From Oscillospiraceae bacterium (GTDB taxonomy: Bacteria > Bacillota > Clostridia > Oscillospirales > Oscillospiraceae), in assembly GCA_017624645.1 (NCBI GenBank), contig JAGAMQ010000007.1, positions 1-15,646 of the forward strand: DNA of 15,646 nt, in the 5' to 3' direction. Below the pieces are notes generated by a model. It saw only the letters and a program-made list of their open reading frames with translations, was not told the DNA's origin and did not search any database. Below are positions 2,450 to 15,646 of this stretch, piece after piece. Positions within the stretch are counted from its first letter, which is position 1, and each line of letters starts with the position of its first letter. Made by a program: the position numbers and the translations under genes.

Positions 2450-4063
2450 TTAACCCCACAATGCCGACAGCATGGGAATGACCTGCTTTTTACGGCTCAT
2501 AACCTTGGGTAGGAACAGGGTGTTGTCCTTGGGGGTGATGTTAAAGGCCTGCTCGATGGTCTCGTCGCTGCCCACATAGATCAGCTGGGTGCCCTCCAGC
2601 AGCACATCCGTGAGCATAAGGATGACCATGGAATACTGATTCTCCTGGGCGGTCTTGCGCATGATGGAAAGGAACTCTTCCTTCCGCTCCAGCATGTTGG
2701 GGCTGTCCACGCAGGTGATCTGACCCACAGCCAGGTCGTGACCGGCGATGTGGAACACCTTGTAGTCGGAGAACAGCAGCTCGTCAGCACTTTTGTTTTC
2801 TATGGAAGCGGTAAAGATCTCCTTGCCCAGATCTTCCAAAGAAATATTGGCAATCCGCGCCATCCGTTCCGCAGTCCGGCGGTCCCGGTCGGTGCAGGTG
2901 GGGGATTTGAACATGACGGTATCCGACAAAATCGCGGCTGCCATCATACCTGCCATGCCGGCAGAGGGCATAAGACCCCGGTCCTGGAACATGCCGGCGA
3001 TGATGGTGTTGGTGGAGCCTACCGGCTCATTGCGCACATAAATGGGATTGGTGGTCTGAATATCTGCCAGACGGTGGTGGTCGATGATCTCCAGAATGTC
3101 CGCTTCCTCCAGACCGGGGACGGACTGGGAAATCTCGTTGTGGTCCACCAGCACCACTCTTTTTCTCCGGGGACGGAGCAGGTGATACCGGGTCAGGACG
3201 CCTACCACCTTGTCCTCGCTGTCCAGAATGGGATAGCAGGGATCACGGAACTGCAGCACCTTCTCCTTGACCTCGTCCAAGCGGTCGTCCAGATGGAAGC
3301 ACACCAGATTCTGGGTCCGGCAGATGCTGCCGATGGATGCGGACTGGAAGATCAGCCGGGCGGCACGGTATGCGTCATAGGGGGTGGCAATGATGCAGGT
3401 GGTGGTGGGCAGTTTGCGCAGATCCTCCGACAGCTCTGACTGACACAGCACCAGACAGTTTACGTTCATTTCCAAGGCTCTGCGGATCATATCCGGCTGA
3501 TGGCCGCACAGGACAATGGAATCCTTTCTGTTAAACAGCAGATTCTCCTGCTCCTGGGGCAGAGCAATGGTGACCTCACCGGAGATGGTGTCGGTATTCT
3601 CACCGGCTTCGTTGAGCAGCTTGCCCTCCAGCACGGAAAGGACATTGAAAAGGGGTACGCTCCGGAGCACTGCCTCTGAGGACAGCTCCATATGGTATTG
3701 TGCCACATTTTCCCGGGACAGCATACCGTACAGGGTGCCGTCCTCCCGGGTCACCGGGACAGCGGAAATATTCTTCTGCTGCTGGAGCACCTTCCATCCT
3801 CTGCCCATGGTGACGGCAGCGGATAAAAGGGGCGGTGTATCAAACTCCAGGTCTTTCACCTGAGTGTGCATACTGGTAATGAGCTTGGGACTTTCAAAAC
3901 CGAACCGGTCCAGCACGATTTGGGTCTCGTCAGACACATGGCCCAGGCAGGCGGCTTCGTATTCTCCGTCGCCGATGGCATTGCGCAGGGCAGCATAAGC
4001 CATAGCGGCAACGATGGAATCGGTATCCGGGTTCCGGTGACCGGTAACATAAATGGGATCCAT
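2450..4063 (-). CDS. ppaC: Family II manganese-dependent inorganic pyrophosphatase with CBS-DRTGG regulatory insert
   Basis: It hydrolyses pyrophosphate to phosphate in the cytoplasm, pulling biosynthetic reactions forward. The 537-residue protein has the DHH phosphoesterase signature split by an insert: metal ligands in GHRNPDTDS (H9, D13, D15), then CBS domain 1 (about 68-125), a DRTGG domain (about 140-235), CBS domain 2 (about 245-297), then DHN (307-309), DHH (328-330) and D381. The C-terminal DHHA2 domain carries the active-site SRKKQ (523-527). Plain family II enzymes are about 310 residues; the extra length is the insert, which in studied relatives binds AMP, ADP or diadenosine polyphosphates to tune activity. 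AAAGGAGG lies seven bases before the ATG, and a consensus promoter lies at 4112-4140. No U-tract terminator follows the stop. Confidence 0.95.
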   Translation of the reverse strand: MDPIYVTGHRNPDTDSIVAAMAYAALRNAIGDGEYEAACLGHVSDETQIVLDRFGFESPKLITSMHTQVKDLEFDTPPLLSAAVTMGRGWKVLQQQKNISAVPVTREDGTLYGMLSRENVAQYHMELSSEAVLRSVPLFNVLSVLEGKLLNEAGENTDTISGEVTIALPQEQENLLFNRKDSIVLCGHQPDMIRRALEMNVNCLVLCQSELSEDLRKLPTTTCIIATPYDAYRAARLIFQSASIGSICRTQNLVCFHLDDRLDEVKEKVLQFRDPCYPILDSEDKVVGVLTRYHLLRPRRKRVVLVDHNEISQSVPGLEEADILEIIDHHRLADIQTTNPIYVRNEPVGSTNTIIAGMFQDRGLMPSAGMAGMMAAAILSDTVMFKSPTCTDRDRRTAERMARIANISLEDLGKEIFTASIENKSADELLFSDYKVFHIAGHDLAVGQITCVDSPNMLERKEEFLSIMRKTAQENQYSMVILMLTDVLLEGTQLIYVGSDETIEQAFNITPKDNTLFLPKVMSRKKQVIPMLSALWG

Positions 4064-4111
4064 AGAAGAACCTCCTTTAAAGGGAATAGTACCTACACTT
4101 ACTCATCCTCT

Positions 4112-4140
4112 ATTATACTCCCGAAAAAGGAAAATAGCAA
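4112..4140 (-). promoter_or_regulatory. Sigma-A type promoter of ppaC
   Basis: On the minus strand, -35 TTGCTA (4135-4140), a 17-base spacer and a perfect -10 TATAAT (4112-4117) point toward ppaC, giving a leader of about 40 bases before the ribosome site region. Confidence 0.88.
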
Positions 4141-4166
4141 GAAGAAATCTGCCCTCCTCTACCGTC

Positions 4167-4402
4167 TAAATTCCAGTTTATCGAACAGATGCGTGCAGGC
4201 TCCCTCTGATGAGGGAGCTGTCAATTGCCGAATCCAGGCAATTGACTGAGGGAGAGATAATGCTCCGATTCTATCCGCAATTGCGGACAATCGCAGAATT
4301 TACTACCCCTTAGACGAAAATCAAAGATTTTCGCCAGCTCCCCTGACAAGGGGAGCCTTTGGCTGGTGCGAAATTTGAAACCGTTTGAAAAATGGGAATT
4401 TA
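4167..4402. mobile_element. MITE-like palindromic element, copy 1 (upstream of the lysine operon)
   Basis: A 236-bp non-coding element. Its ends are imperfect inverted repeats: 4167-4188 matches the reverse complement of 4381-4402 at 17 of 22 bases. Inside is a 160-bp core (4198-4357) beginning GGCTCCCTC and ending GGGGAGCC. The core holds hairpins GCTCCCTC-TGAT-GAGGGAGC, GTCAATTGCC/GGCAATTGAC (4220-4245), the palindrome TCCGCAATTGCGGA (4274-4287), CGAAAATC-AAA-GATTTTCG (4315-4333) and GCTCCCC/GGGGAGC (4337-4356). The ends begin and finish with TA. A second copy lies at 7867-8092. No ORF or transposase is present, so it is non-autonomous if mobile. It lies between the divergent ppaC and dapA promoters, ending four bases before the dapA -35 box. 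Confidence 0.78.
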
Positions 4403-4405
4403 TCA

Positions 4406-4434
4406 TTGACATTGGGACTTTAGTATGTTAAACT
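4406..4434 (+). promoter_or_regulatory. Promoter of the dapA-ddh-lysA operon
   Basis: A perfect -35 TTGACA (4406-4411), a 17-base spacer and -10 TAAACT (4429-4434) place the transcript start near 4441, just before the lysine aptamer begins. The spacing and position fit a riboswitch-led transcript. Confidence 0.87.
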
Positions 4435-4445
4435 GTCCTCACATA

Positions 4446-4605
4446 TTGATAGAGGCGCGTCGCATCAAGAGTATTCCTGCCCGCAGGCTCTCGCAAAGCT
4501 GTGGCAGGGGGAAAGGGATCGTCGCCGAAGGAAGCCGAGGCGAAAGGCCTTCCTGGGCAAACAGGAAATACCTGTTTGACTGTCGCATCAGCGGAGTGCT
4601 ATCAG
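4446..4605 (+). promoter_or_regulatory. Lysine riboswitch (L-box) aptamer
   Basis: The aptamer senses lysine and controls the operon below it. Conserved L-box blocks are visible in order: AGGCGCGTCGCATCAAGAGTA (starting at 4453, with the GAGTA loop sequence), GGGGGAAAGGGATCGTCGCC, CCGAAGGAAGCCGAGG, CTTCCTGGGCA, and the closing GGAGTGCTATC. The P1 stem is TTGATAG (4446-4452) with CTATCAG (4599-4605), using one G-U pair. A further hairpin, AAACAGG/CCTGTTT, lies near 4558-4577. Location upstream of dapA and the terminator at 4642-4670 agree with this call. Confidence 0.95.
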
Positions 4606-4641
4606 TTGCAGCAAATCTGTGTTTGTTTTGTTGTCTATGGT

Positions 4642-4670
4642 AGCCAATGCGCTTATGCATTGGCTTTTTT
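4642..4670 (+). terminator. Riboswitch-controlled terminator before dapA
   Basis: A perfect 9-bp stem (AGCCAATGC 4642-4650, GCATTGGCT 4657-4665; loop GCTTAT) is followed at once by a six-T tract. It lies between the lysine aptamer and the dapA ribosome site, as expected for lysine-induced termination. Confidence 0.93.
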
Positions 4671-4692
4671 AGTTTTAAAGGAGTGTTTGAAA

Positions 4693-5583
4693 ATGAAAAA
4701 AGAGACGATTTTTACCGGTGCGGCTACCGCAATTGTCACCCCTATGAACCCCCAGGGGGTGGATTATCCCGCCTTTGAGCGGCTTCTCAAGTGGCAGGTT
4801 GCCCAGGGCATTGACGCACTGGTGATCTGCGGAACCACCGGCGAAAGCTCTACCCTCACTGACGAGGAGCACCGTGCTGTTTTACAGTTTGCTCTGGATA
4901 CCGTGGGTGGCCGTGTCCCCATGATCGCCGGCACCGGCTCCAACGATGCGGCCTACGCCATGGAGCTGTCCCGTTTTGCCTGTGACATCGGCTATGACGC
5001 CGTTCTGCTGGTAACGCCCTACTATAACAAGACTACCCAAAAGGGTCTTGTGTCCTTCTTCAGCACCATTGCCGACGCCTGTACCAAGCCAGTGATCTTG
5101 TACAATGTGCCCTCCCGGACCGGTGTGAACATCGAACCGGCTACCTATGCCAAGCTGGCGGAGCATCCCATGATCCGGGGCATCAAGGAAGCCGGAGGCA
5201 ACATCTCCAAGATCGTGGAGACTGCCGCGCTGGTGGGTGACAAGCTGGATATCTATTCCGGTAACGATGATCAGATCGTGCCGATTATGGCCTGCGGCGG
5301 CAAGGGCGTGATCTCCGTTCTGTCCAATGTGCTGCCTGCTGAGACCTCCCTGCTGTGTAAGAAGTTCTTCCATGGCGATGTTGCCGGAGCTATGGAAATG
5401 CAGAAGCAGTACCTGCCTCTGATCAATGCTTTGTTCTGTGAGGTCAATCCCATTCCCGCCAAGGCAGCCACCGCTGCCATGGGTTACGGAGAAAACTATC
5501 TCCGCCTGCCTCTGGTGCCTATGGATAAGGAGCATGAGGAAGTACTCCTTGCCTGCATGCGGGAAGTGGGGGTACAGGTATGA
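4693..5583 (+). CDS. dapA: 4-hydroxy-tetrahydrodipicolinate synthase
   Basis: It condenses pyruvate with aspartate semialdehyde, the committed step of the diaminopimelate/lysine pathway. The 296-residue protein has the full active site of the family: Schiff-base lysine in RGIKEAGGN (K165), Tyr in LYNVPSRTG (Y137), the CGTTGES loop (T48, T49), Y111, and R142 for substrate carboxylate binding. Length is typical. The ATG at 4693 is preferred over in-frame extension to 4501 because that extension would run through the riboswitch and terminator; AAAGGAG (4677-4683) lies nine bases upstream. The gene leads the operon and is controlled by the L-box. Its TGA overlaps the ddh start in an ATGA junction, so translation of the two is probably coupled. 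Confidence 0.97.
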   Translation: MKKETIFTGAATAIVTPMNPQGVDYPAFERLLKWQVAQGIDALVICGTTGESSTLTDEEHRAVLQFALDTVGGRVPMIAGTGSNDAAYAMELSRFACDIGYDAVLLVTPYYNKTTQKGLVSFFSTIADACTKPVILYNVPSRTGVNIEPATYAKLAEHPMIRGIKEAGGNISKIVETAALVGDKLDIYSGNDDQIVPIMACGGKGVISVLSNVLPAETSLLCKKFFHGDVAGAMEMQKQYLPLINALFCEVNPIPAKAATAAMGYGENYLRLPLVPMDKEHEEVLLACMREVGVQV

Positions 5584-6563
5584 TCCGTATTGGTATCGTT
5601 GGCTACGGAAACCTTGCCAGGGGCGCGGAATGTGCCATTGCCCAAAACCCGGATATGTGTCTTGCGGCAGTATTCACCCGCCGGGACCCGGCGGCGGTGA
5701 CGATCCGGACCCCGGATGTGCCGGTGGTGAAGCTTGGGGACATTGCTCAGTGGAAAGACCGGATCGATATTCTTTTGATCTGCGGCGGCAGCGCTACGGA
5801 TCTGCCGGAAATGACTCCGGCACTGGCACGGGATTTCCATGTCATCGACAGCTTCGATAACCATTCCAATATTCCTGACCACTACGCCGCGGTGGATGCC
5901 GCTGCCCGGGAAACAGGACACATTGCCTTGATTTCCGCAGGTTGGGACCCGGGGCTTTTCTCCATCAACCGGCTTTACGCCGAGGCGGTGCTGCCGGAGG
6001 GTAAAAACTATACATTTTGGGGCAAGGGCGTCAGTCAGGGTCACTCCGATGCGGTGCGGCGGATCCCCGGTGTGGTGGATTGCCGTCAGTACACCATCCC
6101 TGTAGAGCAGGCCATGGAAGCGGTCCGTGCCGGCAAGGATCCGGAGCTGACCACCCGGCAGAAGCACACCCGGCTTTGCTACGTGGTGGCTGCGGAGGGC
6201 GCGGACCGGGCAGCCATTGAGGACGCCATCAAGACCATGCCCAGTTATTTTGCCGACTATGACACCACCGTAGAGTTTATCACGGCAGAGGAGCTGCAAA
6301 GAGATCACAGCGGCCTGCCCCATGGGGGCAGCGTGATCCGCAGCGGTGTCACCGGTTGGGACCGGGAGTGCCGGCAGACCATTGAGTATAAGCTGACCTT
6401 GGAATCCAACCCCCAGTTTACCGCCAGTGTGCTGGTGGCTGCGACACGGGCTGTCATGAAAATGTATCAGAGGGGTGAGCGGGGCTGCAAGACGGTCTTC
6501 GACATCGCCCCGGCAGATCTCAGCAGGTTCTCCCGGGAGGAGATCATTGCCCATTTGCTATAA
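5580..6563 (+). CDS. ddh: meso-Diaminopimelate dehydrogenase
   Basis: It converts tetrahydrodipicolinate, ammonia and NADPH directly to meso-diaminopimelate in one step, bypassing the acylated intermediates or DapL/DapF route. The 327-residue length is right for the family. The N-terminal Rossmann motif is IGIVGYGNLARG (4-15). Family-typical blocks follow: ICGGSATDLPE (67-77), DSFDNH (90-95), SAGWDPGLFS (119-128) and GKGVSQGHSDAVRR (148-161), the last near the diaminopimelate site. The start overlaps the dapA stop (ATGA), with only a weak G-rich ribosome site, which suggests translational coupling. lysA follows after ten bases. The product is also needed for peptidoglycan, so the operon may supply both wall and lysine. 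Confidence 0.95.
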   Translation: MIRIGIVGYGNLARGAECAIAQNPDMCLAAVFTRRDPAAVTIRTPDVPVVKLGDIAQWKDRIDILLICGGSATDLPEMTPALARDFHVIDSFDNHSNIPDHYAAVDAAARETGHIALISAGWDPGLFSINRLYAEAVLPEGKNYTFWGKGVSQGHSDAVRRIPGVVDCRQYTIPVEQAMEAVRAGKDPELTTRQKHTRLCYVVAAEGADRAAIEDAIKTMPSYFADYDTTVEFITAEELQRDHSGLPHGGSVIRSGVTGWDRECRQTIEYKLTLESNPQFTASVLVAATRAVMKMYQRGERGCKTVFDIAPADLSRFSREEIIAHLL

Positions 6564-6573
6564 GAGGAGAAAT

Positions 6574-7869
6574 ATGTTATACGAGAATCTTTCTATCGGT
6601 CCTCAGGGACATTTGGCCTTTGCCGGCTATGATACCCTCTGGCTGGCAGAGGAATACGGCACCCCCTTGTTTGTAATGGATGAAAAGCGGATCCGTCAGC
6701 GGTGCCGGGAGTATCAGCAGGCAATGGAAGAATATCTTCCTGCCGGTTCCCGACCCCTCTATGCCAGCAAGGCCATGAGTATCCGCAGGATCTATCAGAT
6801 CATGGCCCAGGAGAATATGGGTGTGGATGTGGTGTCTCCCGGGGAGCTGTATACCGCGGTGCAGGCGGGTTTCCCCATGGAAAATGCCTTTTTCCACGGC
6901 AGCAGTAAAACCGATGCCGACATCCGGTTCGCCATGGAGCATAAGGTAGGCTTCTTTATCTGTGACAACGCAGACGAGTTGCTTGCCGTTGATGCCGAGG
7001 CTGCCCGGCAGGGCATTTGTCAGAAGATCCTACTGCGTCTGGCACCGGGCATCGATCCCCATACTCATGAGAAGATCAACACCGGCAGGGTGGATTCCAA
7101 GTTCGGTGTTGCCATTGAGACCGGTCAGGCAGCGGCGTTGGTGGAAAAGATCCTGTCCCTCCGGAATATCGATCTGTGGGGCTACCATTGCCATGTAGGC
7201 TCCCAGCTTTTTGATGAGGTGCTGTTCTGCGATTCTGCCACCAATATGCTCACCTTTGCCGCGGATATGGAAAAGCGGTTCGGCTTTTCCCCGAGGATCG
7301 TGAATCTGGGCGGCGGCATGGGTGTACCCTATACCCAAGAGCAGAACGCCGTGGACTATGCCGGCAACATCCGCAAGCTGGGTGCGCACATTGATGAGCT
7401 GTGCGGCAAGCTGCAGATCAATCCCCCGGCGATCCTCATGGAGCCGGGACGGAGCATTGTGGCTGATTCCGGCATTACCCTGTACACCGTTACCGGCACT
7501 AAGGAGATCCCCGGGTTCAAGAATTATGTGGGCATCGATGGAGGCATGACGGATAATCCCCGGTATACCCTGTATCAGGCACCCTATACCGTGTATAACG
7601 CCGGCAAGATGCAGGAAAAAGCGGATTTTGTGGGTACCGTTGCGGGACGCTGCTGCGAAAGCGGCGACTTGATCCAGGAGAATGTGCCTTTGGCACGGCC
7701 TGTCCGGGGCGACATTCTGGCGGTGCTGACTACCGGTGCCTATAACTACTCCATGGCATCCAATTACAACCGGGTCCCCAGACCTCCGGTGGTCATAATC
7801 GGTGAAAACGGCCCTTATGTCGCCGTACGCCGGGAGACCTACCAGGACCTCCTGCTGTGCGATCTCTAA
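6574..7869 (+). CDS. lysA: Diaminopimelate decarboxylase
   Basis: This PLP enzyme decarboxylates meso-diaminopimelate to L-lysine, the last step of the pathway. The 431-residue protein is a fold III PLP decarboxylase: PLP lysine in LYASKAMS (K66), HVGSQ (207-211), the phosphate-binding GGGMG (246-250), EPGRSIVADSG (290-300), and the partner-subunit substrate loop CESGD (361-365), then YNYSM (390-394). The ATG at 6574 is chosen over an in-frame start at 6475 that lies inside ddh; AGAGGAG (6563-6569) precedes it. It is the last gene of the L-box operon. Its TAA stop (7867-7869) is the first three bases of the left end of the second palindromic element. No U-tract terminator of ordinary type follows on the plus strand. 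Confidence 0.96.
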   Translation: MLYENLSIGPQGHLAFAGYDTLWLAEEYGTPLFVMDEKRIRQRCREYQQAMEEYLPAGSRPLYASKAMSIRRIYQIMAQENMGVDVVSPGELYTAVQAGFPMENAFFHGSSKTDADIRFAMEHKVGFFICDNADELLAVDAEAARQGICQKILLRLAPGIDPHTHEKINTGRVDSKFGVAIETGQAAALVEKILSLRNIDLWGYHCHVGSQLFDEVLFCDSATNMLTFAADMEKRFGFSPRIVNLGGGMGVPYTQEQNAVDYAGNIRKLGAHIDELCGKLQINPPAILMEPGRSIVADSGITLYTVTGTKEIPGFKNYVGIDGGMTDNPRYTLYQAPYTVYNAGKMQEKADFVGTVAGRCCESGDLIQENVPLARPVRGDILAVLTTGAYNYSMASNYNRVPRPPVVIIGENGPYVAVRRETYQDLLLCDL

Positions 7870-8092
7870 ACTCCAATTTGTCCAGCAGTTGACGAACGCA
7901 GTAATGAAGGCTCCCTCTGATGAGGGAGCTGTCAGCGTAGCTGACTGAGGGAGAGAGAACGTTCCGATTTTATCGAAAGTTGCAATATTAACTACCCCTC
8001 AGACGAAAATCAAAGATTTTCGCCAGCTCCCCTGACAAGGGGAGCCTTTGGGACGGTGCAACTTTTCAAACAGCTCCATAAATCGCAATCTG
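7867..8092. mobile_element. MITE-like palindromic element, copy 2 (downstream of lysA)
   Basis: It is in the same orientation as the copy at 4167-4402. The 138-bp core (7909-8046) shares long blocks with it: GGCTCCCTCTGATGAGGGAG, CTGAGGGAGAG, ACTACCCCT, AGACGAAAATCAAAGATTTT and CAGCTCCCCTGACAAGGGGA. The left end TAAACTCCAATTTGTCCAGC resembles the left end of copy 1; the right end (about 8071-8092) is a more decayed inverted repeat (about 12 of 22). The second hairpin differs from copy 1 but remains perfect (GTCAGC-GTA-GCTGAC, 7931-7945). The palindrome at 4274-4287 of copy 1 has no counterpart here. No coding capacity is visible. Confidence 0.75.
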
Positions 8093-8093
8093 A

Positions 8094-8129
8094 AAAAGTA
8101 CCCCCCGTGGCAGCTTGTTGCCACGGGGG
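8094..8129 (-). terminator. Terminator of guaB
   Basis: An 11-bp perfect stem CCCCCGTGGCA (8102-8112) with TGCCACGGGGG (8119-8129), loop six bases, is followed on the minus strand by a short interval and TTTTT. It lies 15 bases after the guaB stop. On the plus strand the T content after the stem is poor, so it is mainly a minus-strand terminator. Confidence 0.85.
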
Positions 8130-8144: not shown

Positions 8145-9650
8145 TTACTTTACGGTGCTGGTGGAGCGCAGGGTGACATCGTGGGCACCGCCCTCCACGA
8201 TGGAAACGGAGGAAACCAAGGTGAGCTTGGCATCCCTTTGCAGGTCGGGGATGTTGGTCACGCCCACATTGCACATGGTGGACTTGACCTTGTATAGGCT
8301 GGCCTCCACATTGTCATGGAGCGTACCGGCATAGGTGACGTAGGAATCCACGCCCTCTTCAAAGCTGAGCTTGGTCTTGCCGCCCAGGTCGTAGCGCTGC
8401 CAGTTACGGGCACGGTTGGAACCCTCGCCCCAGTACTCCTTCATATAAGCGCCGTTCACCATCACCTTGGGGGTGGGAGATTCGTCAAACCGGGCGAAAT
8501 ATCTGCCCAGCATCATGAAGTCCGCGCCCATAGCCAGTGCCAAAGTCATGTGGTAATCGTGGACGATGCCACCGTCGGAGCAGATGGGCACATAGATGCC
8601 GGTCTCCTTGAAGTACTCATCCCGGGCTGCGGCAACCTCGATCAGAGCAGTAGCCTGACCTCTGCCGATGCCCTTGGTCTCACGGGTGATGCAGATAGAG
8701 CCGCCGCCGATGCCCACCTTGATGAAGTCAGCACCTGCCTTGGCAAGGAACAGGAAGCCGTCCCGGTCTACAACGTTGCCGGCACCGATCTTCACGGTGT
8801 CGCCATAGGTCTCCCGGACCCAGGCGATGGTTTTTGCCTGCCAGCAGGTGTAGCCCTCGGAGGAGTCGATGCACAGCACATCGGCACCTGCCTCCAAAAG
8901 GGCGGGGATGCGCTGGGCGTAGTCACGGGTGTTGATGCCGGCACCCACCAGATAGCGCTTCTTGTCGTCCAGCAGCTCCTGGGGGTTTGCCTTATGGGAA
9001 GCGTAATCCTTGCGGAATACGAAATACATCAGATGGTCGTTTTCATCCACGATGGGCAGGCTGTTGAGCTTGTTCTCCCAGATGATGTCGTTGGCTGCCT
9101 TCAAAGTGGTGTCGGCAGGGGCGGTGACGAGCTTTTCCCGGGGGGTCATGAAGGAGCTGACCTTCTCGTCCCCTTCCATACGGCTGACACGGTAATCTCT
9201 GCCGGTGACGATGCCCAGGAGCTTACCGGTGGGAGTGCCGTCATGGGTGACGGCAACGGTGGAGAAACCATTCTGCTCCTTCAGCGCCAGCACATCCTGC
9301 AATGTTGCGTCGGGGGTCAGGTTGGAGGCGGAAACCACAAAGCCTGCCTTATGGTTTTTGACCTTAGCCACCATCTCTGCCTGAGACTCGATGGACTGGG
9401 AACCGAAGATAAAGCTGATGCCGCCCTCCTTTGCCAGTGCAATGGCAAGGGTGTCATTGGACACGGACTGCATAATGGCAGAGGTCATGGGAATGTTTAG
9501 GCTGATGGCCGGCTCTTCCTCACCCTTGCGGTACTTAGTCAGAGGGGTGCGCAGGCTGACGTTGTCGGGAATACAGTCCTCGGAGGTGTAGCCGGGGATC
9601 AGCAGGTATTCACTAAAAGTGTGGCTGGGTTCAGAGTAGTAGTAAGCCAT
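8145..9650 (-). CDS. guaB: IMP dehydrogenase, Tritrichomonas-like subfamily
   Basis: It oxidises IMP to XMP with NAD, the rate-limiting step to guanine nucleotides. The 501-residue protein has the catalytic barrel interrupted by a CBS pair (about residues 105-220). Catalytic Cys320 sits in [12 protein letters not shown], the IMP phosphate/ribose site in CSDGGI (357-362), and the Arg-Tyr pair at 419-420 in [11 protein letters not shown]. Most bacterial enzymes have GPGSICTTR and a shorter flap; this one instead agrees over long blocks with the T. foetus enzyme as I remember it ([40 protein letters not shown]). The start has AGGAGG (9658-9663) seven bases upstream and a consensus promoter at 9722-9750. 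It is a single-gene unit, convergent with lysA and divergent from typA. Confidence 0.95.
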
Positions 9651-9721
9651 GGTGGTTCCTCCTGTGTAGATGGTAGTAATAAGGATGCCGCCTTTGGGCG
9701 GATTGTATTTTGTTACATCAT

Positions 9722-9750
9722 ATCATACCACACGCAGAGAAGTTGGTCAA
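9722..9750 (-). promoter_or_regulatory. Promoter of guaB
   Basis: On the minus strand, -35 TTGACC (9745-9750), a 17-base spacer and -10 TATGAT (9722-9727) preceded by TGG (extended -10). It gives a leader of about 65 bases that contains only a small CCGCC/GGCGG hairpin (9688-9701); I see no riboswitch in it. Confidence 0.85.
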
Positions 9751-9820
9751 GCATTGCGAGGCGTAGAAAAACGGAATATTTTTCCTTGTTTCTTTGTGAT
9801 GTTTATTGCAATCGGGGAGA

Positions 9821-11709: not shown

Positions 11710-12518
11710 TGAAGCAAGTGCTGTCTGTGCAGGATCTTTCCTGTGTGGGAAAATGCTCTCTGACGGTAGCGCTTCCTGTGGTCAGTGCCATGGGCTGTGC
11801 CTGTTCGGTGCTGCCCACCACACTGCTCTCCACCCATACCGGCTTCCCGGAGCCTTACCGCAGAAGTCTTACCGGAGATATGGACGCCGTGTGCGACCAT
11901 TGGCAGAAAATCGGGGCGGATTTTGATGCAGTGAGTGTGGGATATCTGTGCGACCCGGAGCAGGCAGCGGCGGTAGCCAGATTACTGGAGCGCTTCGGGG
12001 GCATCCGGGTCATCGATCCGGTGATGGGTGACCACGGAAAGCTGTACCGCTCCATTACCGAAGCCCATGTGGAGGCAATGCGCACCCTGTGCCGCAAGGG
12101 TACGGTGCTGCTGCCCAATCTGACGGAAGCGGCGCTTCTGACGGGTCTTCCCTACCGGGAGCAGCCTACCCGGGAGCAGTGCCGGCAGCTTCTTGCAGGC
12201 ATGGAGGAATTCGGGGCGGAAACGGTGATCCTCACGGGAGTTTCCCGGCAGGAGGAGCTGGGCTTTGTGGGTAGTCATAAGGGAGAGGAATTTTCCTTTT
12301 TTGCTCCCAAGGTGCCCCGGCAGTGCCACGGCACGGGGGATCTCTTTGCCGCGGTGGTCACCGGCGCTCTGGTGCTGGGGAAAACACCCTCCCAGGCGGC
12401 GACCCTTGCTGCCCGGTTCGTTGCCCGGGTCATTCAAGCAACAAAGGAGGCCACCCCCTTTGGGGTATCCTTTGAGGGCGAGCTTCCCTTTTTGTGGCAG
12501 GAACTTCATATGCTGTAA
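11709..12518 (+). CDS. pdxK: Pyridoxal/pyridoxamine kinase (PfkB-like fold)
   Basis: It phosphorylates vitamin B6 vitamers to make or salvage PLP. The 269-residue protein shows the ribokinase-like family features: SVQDLSCVGKCSLTVALP at the N terminus (6-23), the LPTTLLSTHTGFP substrate segment (35-47), VIDPVMGDHGKLY (101-113), LLPNLTEA (134-141), and the ATP/anion-hole motif HGTGD (207-211) with D211 as likely base. This pattern fits the enzymes usually named pyridoxamine kinase in Firmicutes; the precise vitamer preference cannot be read from sequence, and pdxY is an alternative symbol. Its ATG overlaps the typA stop by one base, with AGGAG (11696-11700) eight bases upstream. It is the last gene before a strong terminator at 12524. 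Confidence 0.87.
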   Translation: MKQVLSVQDLSCVGKCSLTVALPVVSAMGCACSVLPTTLLSTHTGFPEPYRRSLTGDMDAVCDHWQKIGADFDAVSVGYLCDPEQAAAVARLLERFGGIRVIDPVMGDHGKLYRSITEAHVEAMRTLCRKGTVLLPNLTEAALLTGLPYREQPTREQCRQLLAGMEEFGAETVILTGVSRQEELGFVGSHKGEEFSFFAPKVPRQCHGTGDLFAAVVTGALVLGKTPSQAATLAARFVARVIQATKEATPFGVSFEGELPFLWQELHML

Positions 12519-12523
12519 AGCAC

Positions 12524-12557
12524 CGGGGGAACGGCATTTGCCGTTCCCCCGATTTTT
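12524..12557 (+). terminator. Terminator of typA-pdxK
   Basis: A perfect 12-bp stem CGGGGGAACGGC / GCCGTTCCCCCG with loop ATTT is followed by ATTTTTA. It begins six bases after the kinase stop codon. The opposite strand has no U tract after the stem, so its use by the convergent ABC operon is uncertain. Confidence 0.92.
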
Positions 12558-12571
12558 ATCAGTTGAGATTT

Positions 12572-14323
12572 TTAATATACATTAAAAGAACCTATGTTTA
12601 TGTTTTCCTGGGTGATGGTCCTGTCGGGACTTTCCCTGCCTGCGTCATAGAATTGCTGCAGCAGAGCATAGGTGTTGTTCTCCGTGTTGATCTCCACACC
12701 CATATACCGGACGCCGTAGCCTGTATCCCCTTTCAGGGTCAGCTCCAGATAATAGAGGGTCTGTCCGTCGGGGAAGGCTTTCTCGGTTTGTGCCATGGTG
12801 CCATCCCGACAGTCCTTTTCCATGGCTTGCAGCAGGCGGTTTTTCAGTTCCGGCACCTGCACCTTCACATCGTTGTGCGCCGGGGCATCCCCCTCTCCCA
12901 CAAAGATGCCGATGCTGCCTTCGGGCTTTTCCGCCCGTACAGAGATCAGCCGCTGGGAAAGTTCTTCATAGCTCAGTTCGAAAACTGCTTCCCAGGAGGA
13001 CATGACCTTCACCAGCGCCTCCTCCTCCGCCAGCTCCACAGGATAGTACCGGCGCATGGTAGTGCCGTCGGACAGACGGTAGGTCAGATACAGCATTTGT
13101 CCGTGGGGCTGGGTGTCGTTCCGGTTTTGGGCCAGCTTTTCATGGGTCTGCACCAAGCTTTCGATATGCGACCGATCCGTGATCCGGTTTTGGTCGTAGA
13201 AATAGCTTTGATAGTATTTTCCGTTGGCGTAGGGGTGGACATACACCTGCGCATACCGGACCTGGGCAGCCTCCGGCACCTGCCAGGTGACCCCAAAAGG
13301 ATCCATGCTGCACAGCAAAAGACTGCCGAAAAGGGCAAAGACCAGAATTCCAAACCACAAAAATGCCTTGCTTTGGAACACGTTTACTCGCTTTTCCACC
13401 AACATTCTGCCACCGAAGAAGCCGATGAACAGATAGGGGATCAGCAGGCCCAGCAGGCTTGTTCCGTGACCCATGATGGAGAACAGTGCCACCGCCACCA
13501 GCAGGGAAAAGGCTCCCACGAAGATCGGCTGCAGCAGCCGCAGACTGATAAGGTCGCCGGCAGTTTCCAACGAGCGCTTCCGGTACAGAAGCAGGGCAGC
13601 GGCAGCCATTGCAGCACCCGCACCGCCGCAGATCAGCAGATACCCCCAATCCTTGGGCTGTACACCGGTAAAGCTGTCGTGATACAGGTCAAAAAGGTTC
13701 TCTGCTTCCTCCATGAGATTCATCAGCGGCGACCATGGGGCAAAGGAATCGGCGTTGAGGGGTACGCCGTACAAAAGGGGCTGATACAGGGTGTTGCCCA
13801 CCCATTGCAGGATGGGTGCCATGAAATTCAGCAGGGCAAAGAGGATCACTGCCCCTACCCGGTTGCCGCAGAGCATGGTGCACAGCAGTGCCAAGCCGAA
13901 AAACAAAAAGAATTCCAACAGACCAATGCCGGTTCCCATGGCAACCACGGCGATATCGCTGCCTGTGAGCCCCAGGATAAACTGGAAGCACAGGAAAGGA
14001 ACGGCGAAAAACAGCAGCCCGGCGGCACTGTGGGTGAAAAACCAACCCTCTCTGCGCAGAGGCAGGGCGTGGAGGGCGTTGCACAGCCGGCTCTGATACA
14101 GGTCTGCGAAAAGGGTCAGCGCGCACACCAGGGCGTAGGCGGCAACTGCCCAGCCTCCGGTGATATACACAGGGACCACTGCATCTCCGCTTCGGGGAGG
14201 ATCCAGCCGCAGGGAAAGGAACAAAAGCCCCAAAAGGATCGCAAAAATACCCCAAACCGGAAAGAAACGGGTGATATCCCGGCGCAGCACCGAAGCATTA
14301 AAGAAGGATCGTCTTGACCGCAT
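12572..14323 (-). CDS. ABC transporter permease with large C-terminal soluble domain (YtrC/D-like module)
   Basis: This is the membrane partner of the ATPase gene just upstream. The 583-residue protein has about nine hydrophobic segments (near residues 21-39, 56-76, 99-120, 125-151, 155-176, 227-247, 267-285, 288-305, 320-340), followed by a hydrophilic domain of about 240 residues (345-583) with no motif I can name. The ATG at 14323 is preferred over an in-frame upstream start because GGGAGG (14332-14337) lies eight bases before it. It overlaps the ATPase gene by 26 bases. GntR plus ATPase plus permease resembles the Bacillus ytr module induced by wall-active antibiotics, but the substrate here is unknown. 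The plus strand also has a long open frame over this gene, judged a shadow. Confidence 0.88.
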   Translation of the reverse strand: MRSRRSFFNASVLRRDITRFFPVWGIFAILLGLLFLSLRLDPPRSGDAVVPVYITGGWAVAAYALVCALTLFADLYQSRLCNALHALPLRREGWFFTHSAAGLLFFAVPFLCFQFILGLTGSDIAVVAMGTGIGLLEFFLFFGLALLCTMLCGNRVGAVILFALLNFMAPILQWVGNTLYQPLLYGVPLNADSFAPWSPLMNLMEEAENLFDLYHDSFTGVQPKDWGYLLICGGAGAAMAAAALLLYRKRSLETAGDLISLRLLQPIFVGAFSLLVAVALFSIMGHGTSLLGLLIPYLFIGFFGGRMLVEKRVNVFQSKAFLWFGILVFALFGSLLLCSMDPFGVTWQVPEAAQVRYAQVYVHPYANGKYYQSYFYDQNRITDRSHIESLVQTHEKLAQNRNDTQPHGQMLYLTYRLSDGTTMRRYYPVELAEEEALVKVMSSWEAVFELSYEELSQRLISVRAEKPEGSIGIFVGEGDAPAHNDVKVQVPELKNRLLQAMEKDCRDGTMAQTEKAFPDGQTLYYLELTLKGDTGYGVRYMGVEINTENNTYALLQQFYDAGRESPDRTITQENINIGSFNVY

Positions 14324-15179
14324 CGTTGACACCTCCCAGCTCATAAATAAAGATTTCCTCAAGGGACAGAGGCAGCACATCGAAATAGGCAGGGTCTGCC
14401 TTTTGCAACTTCCGTTCCGTCTCCTCTGCCGTGCCCCGGACGATGAGCGTTTGCAGCCGACCGGAGTGGCTTTCGTGGAGGATCTGCAGATCCTCCGGGA
14501 CTTTGCCCGCTACCTGCACCTTTACGGTGCTTCCCTGCATATCCGCAAGGCTTCGCTCCAGCAGCATTTTGCCGTGGTCCATGATACCCACATGGTCGCA
14601 GATATCCTCCAGCTCCCGGAGGTTGTGGGAGGAGATCAGCACGGTGGTCTGCCGCTCCGCCACCTCTGCAAGGAGCAGACTCCATACCTGCCGGCGCATC
14701 ACAGGGTCCAGTCCGTCCACCGGTTCGTCCAGAATCAGCACCTCCGGGCGGGCGCTGAGGGCTAGCTGAAACGCCGCCTGCTTTTGCATACCCTTGGAAA
14801 ACCGCCGGAGCTGACCCTTCAGATTCAGCCCGAATACCTCCTGTAAACGGTAAAACAATGCTTTGTCAAACCGGGGATAGATCCCGGCATAGTAGCTGCA
14901 CATATCTGCCAAAGTGGCAGAGGGGAAGAAAAATACCTCGTCGCCGATGCAGCAAAGGCGCTCCTTGGCGGCAACATTTTCAAAAACCGGCGTATCTTCC
15001 AAAAGCACCTCTCCCGCGTCCGGACGGTATACTCCGGTGAGGTGACGGATGGCGGTGGACTTTCCTGCGCCGTTGGGGCCTACAAGGCCGTAGACGGCAC
15101 CCTTGGGAACCGTCATATTCAACCCGTCCAGTGCCTTGAAAGTGCCAAAATGCTTGGTAACATTACACATTTTCAGCAT
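14298..15179 (-). CDS. ABC transporter ATP-binding protein (YtrB-like)
   Basis: It is the energising subunit for the permease that follows. The 293-residue protein has Walker A GPNGAGKST (34-42), an ABC signature of divergent form FSKGMQKQ (127-134), Walker B VLILDEP (147-153), D-loop GLDP (156-159) and switch histidine H185 in SSHNL. The usual Q-loop glutamine is not evident; the segment reads IGDEVFFFP (78-86), as in some YtrB-like exporters. About 75 residues follow the switch region as an accessory C-terminal domain. The gene overlaps gntR by 17 bases and the permease gene by 26 bases, so all three are translated as a coupled unit. GGAGGAGGGAG lies about 10 bases before the start. Confidence 0.94.
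   Translation of the reverse strand: MLKMCNVTKHFGTFKALDGLNMTVPKGAVYGLVGPNGAGKSTAIRHLTGVYRPDAGEVLLEDTPVFENVAAKERLCCIGDEVFFFPSATLADMCSYYAGIYPRFDKALFYRLQEVFGLNLKGQLRRFSKGMQKQAAFQLALSARPEVLILDEPVDGLDPVMRRQVWSLLLAEVAERQTTVLISSHNLRELEDICDHVGIMDHGKMLLERSLADMQGSTVKVQVAGKVPEDLQILHESHSGRLQTLIVRGTAEETERKLQKADPAYFDVLPLSLEEIFIYELGGVNDAVKTILL
14332..14337 (-). promoter_or_regulatory. Ribosome binding site that fixes the permease start
   Basis: GGGAGG on the minus strand lies eight bases before the ATG at 14323 and inside the end of the ATPase gene. The in-frame start further upstream (14380) has no such site. Confidence 0.8.
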
Positions 15180-15592: not shown

Positions 15593-15646
15593 AAAATTCC
15601 AATTTATCGAGCTGTTTTATATCTTGCATAGGGGAGGGTCTTGACC
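15593..15646. repeat. Probable end of a third copy of the palindromic element, cut by the window edge
   Basis: AAAATTCCAATTTATCGAGC at 15593-15612 is like the left end of copy 1 at 4167 (18 of 22 bases over 15593-15614) and copy 2 at 7867. It continues with GCTGTTTTATATCTTGCATAGG, resembling the inward sequence of copy 2's right end. The core hairpins are not yet visible at the edge. It sits directly upstream of the gntR promoter. Confidence 0.45.

What the first reader, a model, noticed from the sequence alone, without database searches (positions are those of the whole stretch)
4167..8092. Lysine operon, with its promoter and riboswitch, is bracketed by two same-orientation copies of a palindromic element
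Copies at 4167-4402 and 7867-8092 share several blocks of up to about 40 identical bases. One ends four bases before the dapA -35 box and the other starts at the lysA stop codon, so exactly one complete regulated unit lies between them. This could be a cassette moved by recombination between, or trans-mobilisation of, the two elements, or chance insertion at transcription-unit borders, where such repeats tend to accumulate. The arrangement is seen directly; the cassette idea is inference.
Basis: partly seen in the sequence, partly recalled or inferred. Interest (0 to 1): 0.7.

Follow-up and report, generated by a model that had tools for sequence, protein, structure and literature searches.

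The report
Mobile-element shells bracket lysine operon
The two repeats around this bacterium's lysine operon are most likely two separate copies of a small mobile-element family with fixed ends and changeable palindromic middles, there by coincidence; related bacteria seem to swap the middles while the ends stay in place, which is unusual.

Summary
Observation confirmed: elements at 4168-4401 and 7868-8091, same orientation, longest identical run 51 nt. The first ends four bases before a TTGACA box; the second supplies two bases of lysA's TAA stop. The cassette reading is not supported. The copies are 80% alike, and each has closer kin elsewhere in the MAG (94-95%; 87%). With the 21 elements known in the MAG, 0.87 pairs this close are expected by chance (0.32 with the 13 of the same core type). 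In 20 congener loci the lysine unit lies among mostly different neighbours; none shows this element on both sides, yet the closest ones keep the same promoter and stop limits. The copies are MITE-like: a ~24-bp terminal inverted repeat ("shell") around palindromes ("core"). The same shell holds unrelated cores elsewhere, and at five of eight sites compared between species the shell is kept while the core differs, so cores seem to be exchanged inside resident shells. Shell edges fall on T|AA stop codons more often than on neighbouring offsets. No transposase with these ends and no target duplication was found. I rate the lysine arrangement ordinary and the shell/core behaviour a new variant of a known kind.

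The parts
4168..4401 (+). Element copy 1 (CTCCC core), shell edge to shell edge, between ppaC and the dapA promoter
4168..4191 (+). Left terminal inverted repeat of copy 1
   Evidence: 4 mismatches to AAATTCCAATTTATCGAGCAGTTT
4378..4401 (-). Right terminal inverted repeat of copy 1
   Evidence: 5 mismatches
4198..4246 (+). Left palindromic unit of copy 1 core
   Evidence: fold z -5.0
4315..4362 (-). Right palindromic unit of copy 1 core, inverted relative to the left one
   Evidence: fold z -5.0; the element matches its own HMM on both strands
4406..4434 (+). Promoter-like TTGACA-17-TAAACT of the lysine operon
   Evidence: sequence; congeners; consensus recalled
4442..4609 (+). Lysine riboswitch aptamer RF00168
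   Evidence: 91.3 bits, E 2.3e-23
4693..5583 (+). dapA
   Evidence: PF00701; congener homology
5580..6563 (+). ddh, diaminopimelate dehydrogenase
   Evidence: PF16654
6574..7869 (+). lysA
   Evidence: PF02784/PF00278; start and C-terminus by comparison with congeners
7868..8091 (+). Element copy 2 (CTCCC core, other subfamily); first two bases are part of the lysA TAA stop
7868..7891 (+). Left terminal inverted repeat of copy 2
   Evidence: 4 mismatches
8068..8091 (-). Right terminal inverted repeat of copy 2
   Evidence: 5 mismatches
8102..8129 (.). G+C-rich hairpin between lysA and guaB with a T run on the guaB side; likely terminator
   Evidence: read from sequence; no terminator scan was run
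15594..15646 (+). Start of a third element with the same terminal repeat and a GGGGAGGGTC core, cut by the window end
2450..4063 (-). ppaC-type pyrophosphatase with CBS and DRTGG domains
8145..9650 (-). guaB
   Evidence: PF00478

Best explanation
The two repeats are separate copies of a non-autonomous, MITE-like element: a ~24-bp terminal inverted repeat around two inverted palindromic units. They lie in gaps between transcription units: one fills the space up to the -35 box of dapA, the other abuts the stop codon of lysA. They bracket the lysine operon by coincidence, because the genome holds many such elements and they occupy such gaps. The operon is an inherited unit whose place differs between species, as do the joints around its neighbours, without these elements at its ends. 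Shown: the copies, their ends, subfamilies, other genome copies, and congener operons not flanked by them on both sides. Inferred: that each copy arrived in its own event, by a transposase acting in trans that I did not find.
For: Terminal repeat seen in an alignment of 12 own-genome copies. It occurs in 36 of 136 genomes of the genus, own included, at up to 3 mismatches; the reversed pattern gave 0 in every row. Copy 1 is 95% and 94% like the copies on C84 and C151 but 80% like copy 2; copy 2 is 87% like C183 and C143. Chance: 21 copies give 0.87 expected pairs within 3.7 kb, P of at least one 0.59; 13 copies 0.32 and 0.27 (contig lengths simulated). Operon in congeners: 20 loci (of 34 congeners with ddh), 15 with dapA-ddh-lysA, 4 with dapA-ddh, 1 with ddh only, mostly different neighbours. 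DNA homology starts at 4405-4406 in five congeners (G106, G109, G077, G095, G115) and ends at 7864-7870 in the closest ones. Other repeat families near the same borders in 5 of 17 congeners.
Against: No target duplication and no element carrying a transposase was found, so transposition is inferred. With the 13 copies of this core type alone a pair is the less likely outcome (P 0.27), and three elements in one 15.6-kb stretch exceed the mean density (21 in 1.34 Mb). The tree of copies puts copy 2 with C144, not with C183/C143, so its nearest kin is uncertain. G101 has a shell-type element about 80 nt upstream of its dapA TTGACA box, and its other side is cut 165 nt past lysA. In G011 and G022 the operon lies within about 4 kb of bipA, a neighbour of guaB, so part of the region may be old. 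No second strain shows either copy coming or going.
Confidence: 0.82

Rival explanations
1. The segment 4168-8091 is a composite, trans-mobilised cassette: a transposase acting on the outer ends of the two elements moved the whole lysine unit.
For: Same orientation, one complete regulated unit between the copies. Precedent: TIME-COMP2, 3892 bp with a miniature element at each end in the same orientation (PMC4133298, passages).
Against: The TIME-COMP end copies are identical or differ by 1 nt; here they are 80% alike and of different subfamilies. 0 of 20 congener operon loci show this element at both ends, though in G101 one side is cut. The unit has the same limits in congeners without it.
Confidence: 0.05
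2. The junction at copy 1 or copy 2 is an assembly chimera of the MAG, so the bracket is not real.
For: MAG of 190 contigs, 68% complete; many shell matches in these MAGs lie within 300 bases of a contig start; copy 1 is 94-95% like two others.
Against: The copies differ at positions spread over their length, so long k-mers should separate them (inference). Reads and depth were not available.
Confidence: 0.07
3. The elements were kept at these borders because their hairpins end or protect transcripts, or insulate the operon.
For: Strong hairpins; several congeners have a hairpin soon after the lysA stop, where copy 2 lies (read by eye); at site E shells lie between a hairpin and a TTGACA box (read by eye).
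Against: 12 of 17 congener operons had none of five repeat families within 400 nt; a separate terminator-like hairpin lies beyond copy 2; the CTCCC hairpins are not followed by a T run.
Confidence: 0.1

Closest known systems
MITEs (bacterial miniature inverted-repeat transposable elements), e.g. Correia elements, RUP, TIMEs
   Same: Short, multicopy, non-coding, terminal inverted repeats, mostly between genes (definition in passages of PMC4133298 and PMC10969869)
   Different: No target duplication and no autonomous partner found; one set of ends carries many unrelated palindromic middles, and middles differ at orthologous sites
REP / BIME / REPIN repeats with RAYT transposases
   Same: The CTCCC core is a pair of inverted palindromic units; such units also occur singly or paired without this shell in congeners; REPIN definition from passages of PMC3116915
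   Different: No Y1 transposase match in this MAG; in four congeners with one, no paired shell or full core beside it
TIME-COMP composite elements (Tn3-derived miniature elements around a cargo)
   Same: Two miniature elements in the same orientation around about 4 kb (PMC4133298, passages)
   Different: End copies 80% alike instead of identical or nearly so; no evidence that the segment moves
Microdiversity loci with segment replacement in E. coli and other species
   Same: Different short segments between the same conserved borders (PMC2884548, passages)
   Different: There the borders are backbone DNA; here the border is itself a repeated shell and the segments compared are palindromic repeats

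Membership tests
MITE | Terminal inverted repeats | tested here: met
   about 24 bp, agreement falls off just outside
MITE | Short, multicopy, no transposase gene | tested here: met
   52-440 bp in 54 elements, of pairs sought up to 600 bp; 43 ends in this MAG, 61, 144 and 276 in three congeners
MITE | Target-site duplication | tested here: inconclusive
   No excess of equal flanks for 2-10 nt in 54 elements; a constant AATT duplication within the ends cannot be excluded
MITE | Autonomous element with the same ends | tested here: inconclusive
   None in the stretches fetched; several ends stayed unpaired there and the genomes are incomplete
REP/REPIN with RAYT | Y1 transposase (PF01797) in the genome, next to the repeat | tested here: not met
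   0 in G000 (68% complete); one each in G088, G044, G081, G016; beside them only one unpaired shell-like match with 5 mismatches (L293) and a 27-nt weak core match, E 8e-4 (L291)
REP/REPIN with RAYT | Inverted palindromic units | tested here: met
Composite miniature-element transposon | Near-identical end copies | tested here: not met
   80%
Composite miniature-element transposon | Same segment with both ends at another place, or absent, in kin | tested here: inconclusive
   0 of 20 congener operons show both ends, one cut on one side; no genome of the same species
Lysine riboswitch operon | RF00168 upstream of a lysine gene | tested here: met

The most novel reading that the evidence does not exclude
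The element is a long-lived shell with exchangeable palindromic cores. Once a shell is in place, its core is replaced by recombination between terminal repeats of the many shells in the genome, or by cores entering an emptied shell, so one site shows unrelated palindromes in sister species while the shell descends vertically. The copies around the lysine operon would be two such docking sites, one fused to a stop codon and one to a promoter edge.
Probability: 0.55. Interest if true: 0.68.

Novelty: new variant of a known kind. Interest (0 to 1): 0.48.

Why it matters
Bacterial intergenic regions hold many palindromic repeats of unknown origin. If palindromes change places inside fixed shells, repeat families that look unrelated share one vehicle, and the site, not the palindrome, is what descends. 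That would explain how different repeat families come to occupy the same gap in sister species, and strain collections could test it. For the lysine operon the lesson is plain: a tidy bracket of repeats is not evidence of a cassette.

Tried and rejected
Cassette: rejected on subfamily, chance and congener evidence. Conserved synteny as refuter: fails. G018 has ppaC and guaB 6.4 kb apart in the same relative orientation, but other genes lie between them, so it is no empty site. Rfam at a loose threshold on 4060-4440: two matches below gathering scores (sR24, E 0.0024; TCV_Pr, E 0.29), taken as chance. RAYT link: not found at the elements. Autonomous element: a 3-kb pair of ends in G088 C65 fell apart, one end pairing with a nearer one and the other staying unpaired. 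Target duplication: none seen. Papers: listings of searches held no title on this shell or its CTCCC core; the shell and CTCCC strings matched no paper (its 8 hits were for GTCATTGCGAG and unrelated by title). Searches were for background. The empty site of the two window copies was out of reach: the nearest congeners are about 75% alike in the operon DNA.

Rows dropped: of 15 own-genome matches 12 were aligned; C68 (66 nt), C57 (25 nt) and a second small C134 match were left out. One search left out site A in G087 (no such shell), site B in G087 (contigs end inside the core) and three compared sites without the pattern (see full report). Copy 2 of the window is not among the 61 elements: its ends have too many mismatches.
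Full report
WHAT IS THERE. The window is C76:1-15646 of an incomplete MAG (1.34 Mb in 190 contigs, 68% complete). Genes around the finding: ppaC-type pyrophosphatase (minus), then dapA, ddh, lysA (plus) behind a lysine riboswitch, guaB (minus), bipA (plus). The repeats are at 4168-4401 and 7868-8091, same orientation, longest identical run 51 nt.

WHAT THE REPEAT IS. Aligning 12 of the 15 own-genome matches shows precise ends: AAATTCCAATTTATCGAGCAGTTT on the left and its reverse complement on the right. Inside are two palindromic units, GGCTCCC...GGGAGC each with a second stem, in inverted order; the element matches its own HMM on both strands. I call the ends the shell and the inside the core. 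The shell occurs in 36 of 136 genomes of the genus, own included (up to 3 mismatches), and the reversed control in none. A looser pattern gives 43 ends in this MAG, 144 in G044, 276 in G088 and 61 in G081, control 0. In 54 collected elements the first base is A in 104 of 108 ends, partly because the pattern asks for it; just outside, agreement drops to a weak TT-pyrimidine preference (94 of 108 have C or T next to the edge). Cores of the 54, sorted by first match: CTCCC 15, TAGGGCGGGG/TAGGGGCG 11, GTCATTGCGAG 10, three families of 3 each, 9 unsorted. One element is little more than two ends back to back, 52 bp (L178, G048). No element with a transposase was seen in the stretches fetched, though several ends stayed unpaired, and no target duplication of 2-10 nt.

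WHY THE LYSINE BRACKET IS ORDINARY. (1) Copy 1 is 95% and 94% like C84 and C151 but 80% like copy 2; copy 2 is 87% like C183 and C143, while the tree joins it to the diverged C144. (2) With 21 known elements random placement gives 0.87 pairs within 3.7 kb, P 0.59; with the 13 CTCCC copies 0.32, P 0.27. (3) ddh is found in 35 of 136 genomes, own included. Of the 34 congeners, 20 were taken with wide flanks: 15 loci hold dapA-ddh-lysA, 4 dapA-ddh, 1 ddh only. The unit is not always whole: G109, G077 and G112 have dapA-lysA without ddh between. Neighbours are mostly different; some species share some, e.g. G115/G095, G110/G090, G153/G098, and G073/G022/G018/G074 in part. PSP1-holB-ppaC is kept in 9 of 11 ppaC loci and guaB lies directly beside bipA in 8 of 12 guaB loci, window included; ppaC-dapA and lysA-guaB adjacency occur only in the window. 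Against a full shuffle, the operon lies within about 4 kb of bipA in G011 and G022. (4) DNA homology of the unit starts at 4405-4406 in five congeners and ends at 7864-7870 in the closest; a TTGACA-like box lies upstream of the riboswitch, and lysA ends at the matching place, in nearly all loci shown. So promoter and stop, not the elements, set the limits. (5) The own-copy HMM found single matches in four of the 20 loci: 7 kb from ddh (G081), between ddh and lysA (G098), and 1.8 kb or more away (G018, G074). A looser shell pattern found one pair, about 80 nt upstream of the TTGACA box in G101, whose other side is cut 165 nt past lysA, and unpaired matches in G106, G153 and G017; a CTCCC-like unit lies before dapA in G022. 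(6) Five repeat families sought within 400 nt of 17 congener units gave 3 hits upstream (G098, G073, G022) and 3 downstream of the last gene found (lysA in G098 and G090, ddh in G074); G098 has one on each side (edges estimated in some loci).

STOP CODONS. Copy 2 begins T|AA at the lysA stop. Among 61 elements, 112 ends had at least 460 nt of flank; in 12 the shell completes a TAA that ends an ORF of at least 150 codons, against 0 or 1 at each other offset up to 5 and 8 to 16 per bin of about 20-25 nt further out to 75. Part of this is mechanical: shells start with AA, so any in-frame T before them makes a stop, and an insertion inside a gene end would look the same. For lysA the stop is where congeners have theirs.

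CORES DIFFER AT ORTHOLOGOUS SITES. A G080 element was compared with related species: between the same two genes G080, G120 and G087 have a shell at the same place with three cores (CTCCC; a hybrid of GGGGAGGATC and half of CTCCC; AATGGATAATGG), while the stretches of G092, G110 and G048 show no shell. In all I compared eight sites where both flanks could be followed across species. At five (1, A, B, D in G080/G120/G087, and E in G088/G080) the shell is kept and the core differs. At L307:1493 G120 has a shell and G080 none. At site F, G016 and G015 share a CTCCC-type unit but the ends differ, the opposite pattern. At the eighth (L247/L312) the flanks lie 4.7 kb apart and it was not resolved. 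Shells are also missing in G087 at site A and in G120 at site D. One search counts 7 species pairs at the five sites. Left ends agree at 18-20 of 21 bases in six pairs and 13 of 21 at E; right ends at 14-18 of 21. Core scores lie within the range of 200 shuffles in 6 of 7 pairs (two of these, A and D, above the 95% level); the seventh, G080/G120 at site 1, shares half a core. Flanks agree, e.g. 57 of 59 and 53 of 60 bases at D; weak are the left flanks of site 1 for G080/G087 (8 aligned bases; another repeat lies there) and of A (16 of 20). At B the two G087 contigs end inside the core, which looks like the G080 core turned round (by eye); I do not rely on it. Variants of the ends run with the site: AATTG instead of AATTT at A and B in G080 and G120, CGGAAATTT at D in G080 and G087. 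This favours an inherited shell with a replaced core over repeated insertion, since the flanks show only a weak target preference. A and B share flanking sequence within G080, so they may not be independent.

HOW IT PROBABLY WORKS. Shown: fixed ends, variable palindromic cores, the same shell place in several species, an excess of edges at stops. Inferred: shells arrive by a transposase acting in trans; later the ends of many shells serve as short homology for exchange of cores, or cores enter emptied shells. A hot spot hit again and again is the alternative. No movement was observed.

COMPARISON. By the definition in PMC4133298 (passages) this is MITE-like, with target duplication and partner not established. 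The core resembles REPIN organisation (PMC3116915, passages), but no RAYT is linked (calling the Y1 genes RAYT-like is recall). Segment replacement between conserved borders is known (PMC2884548, passages). PMC10969869 (passages) notes that stretches flanked by MITEs can be mobilised, a precedent for the cassette idea. PMC2267715 was seen in passages only. In the listings of searches I found no paper on this shell or on cores differing inside one shell; most subscription papers are not in that library.

Noticed in passing
window 15594-15646: A third element with the same terminal repeat and a different core (GGGGAGGGTC) is cut by the end of the window; many shell matches in these MAGs lie close to contig ends.
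   Followed up: partly
L310, L323, L315, L306-L308, L193, L305: Same shell but different palindromic cores at five sites shared by G080, G120, G087 or G088.
   Followed up: yes
L271, L272 (G016): CTCCC cores with a variant terminal repeat, AAATTGGAATTTAGCGCACT.
   Followed up: partly
L178 1501-1552 (G048): A 52-bp element that is little more than two terminal repeats back to back, a possible empty shell.
   Followed up: no
L291-L294: One Y1 transposase match each in G016, G088, G044 and G081; hairpins of other families (GGGCGGATA, GGACACCCC) lie in or near the genes in G088 and G044.
   Followed up: partly
L090 about 8781-9760 (G090): ddh appears in two overlapping pieces in different frames in this MAG.
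   Followed up: no
L023-L030 and further rows: Many congeners have only a distant (about 30% identical) lysA-like decarboxylase.
   Followed up: no
window 12494-14380: Two long overlapping ORFs on opposite strands (607 aa plus, 602 aa minus); the minus one has no Pfam match, the plus one was not searched.
   Followed up: no
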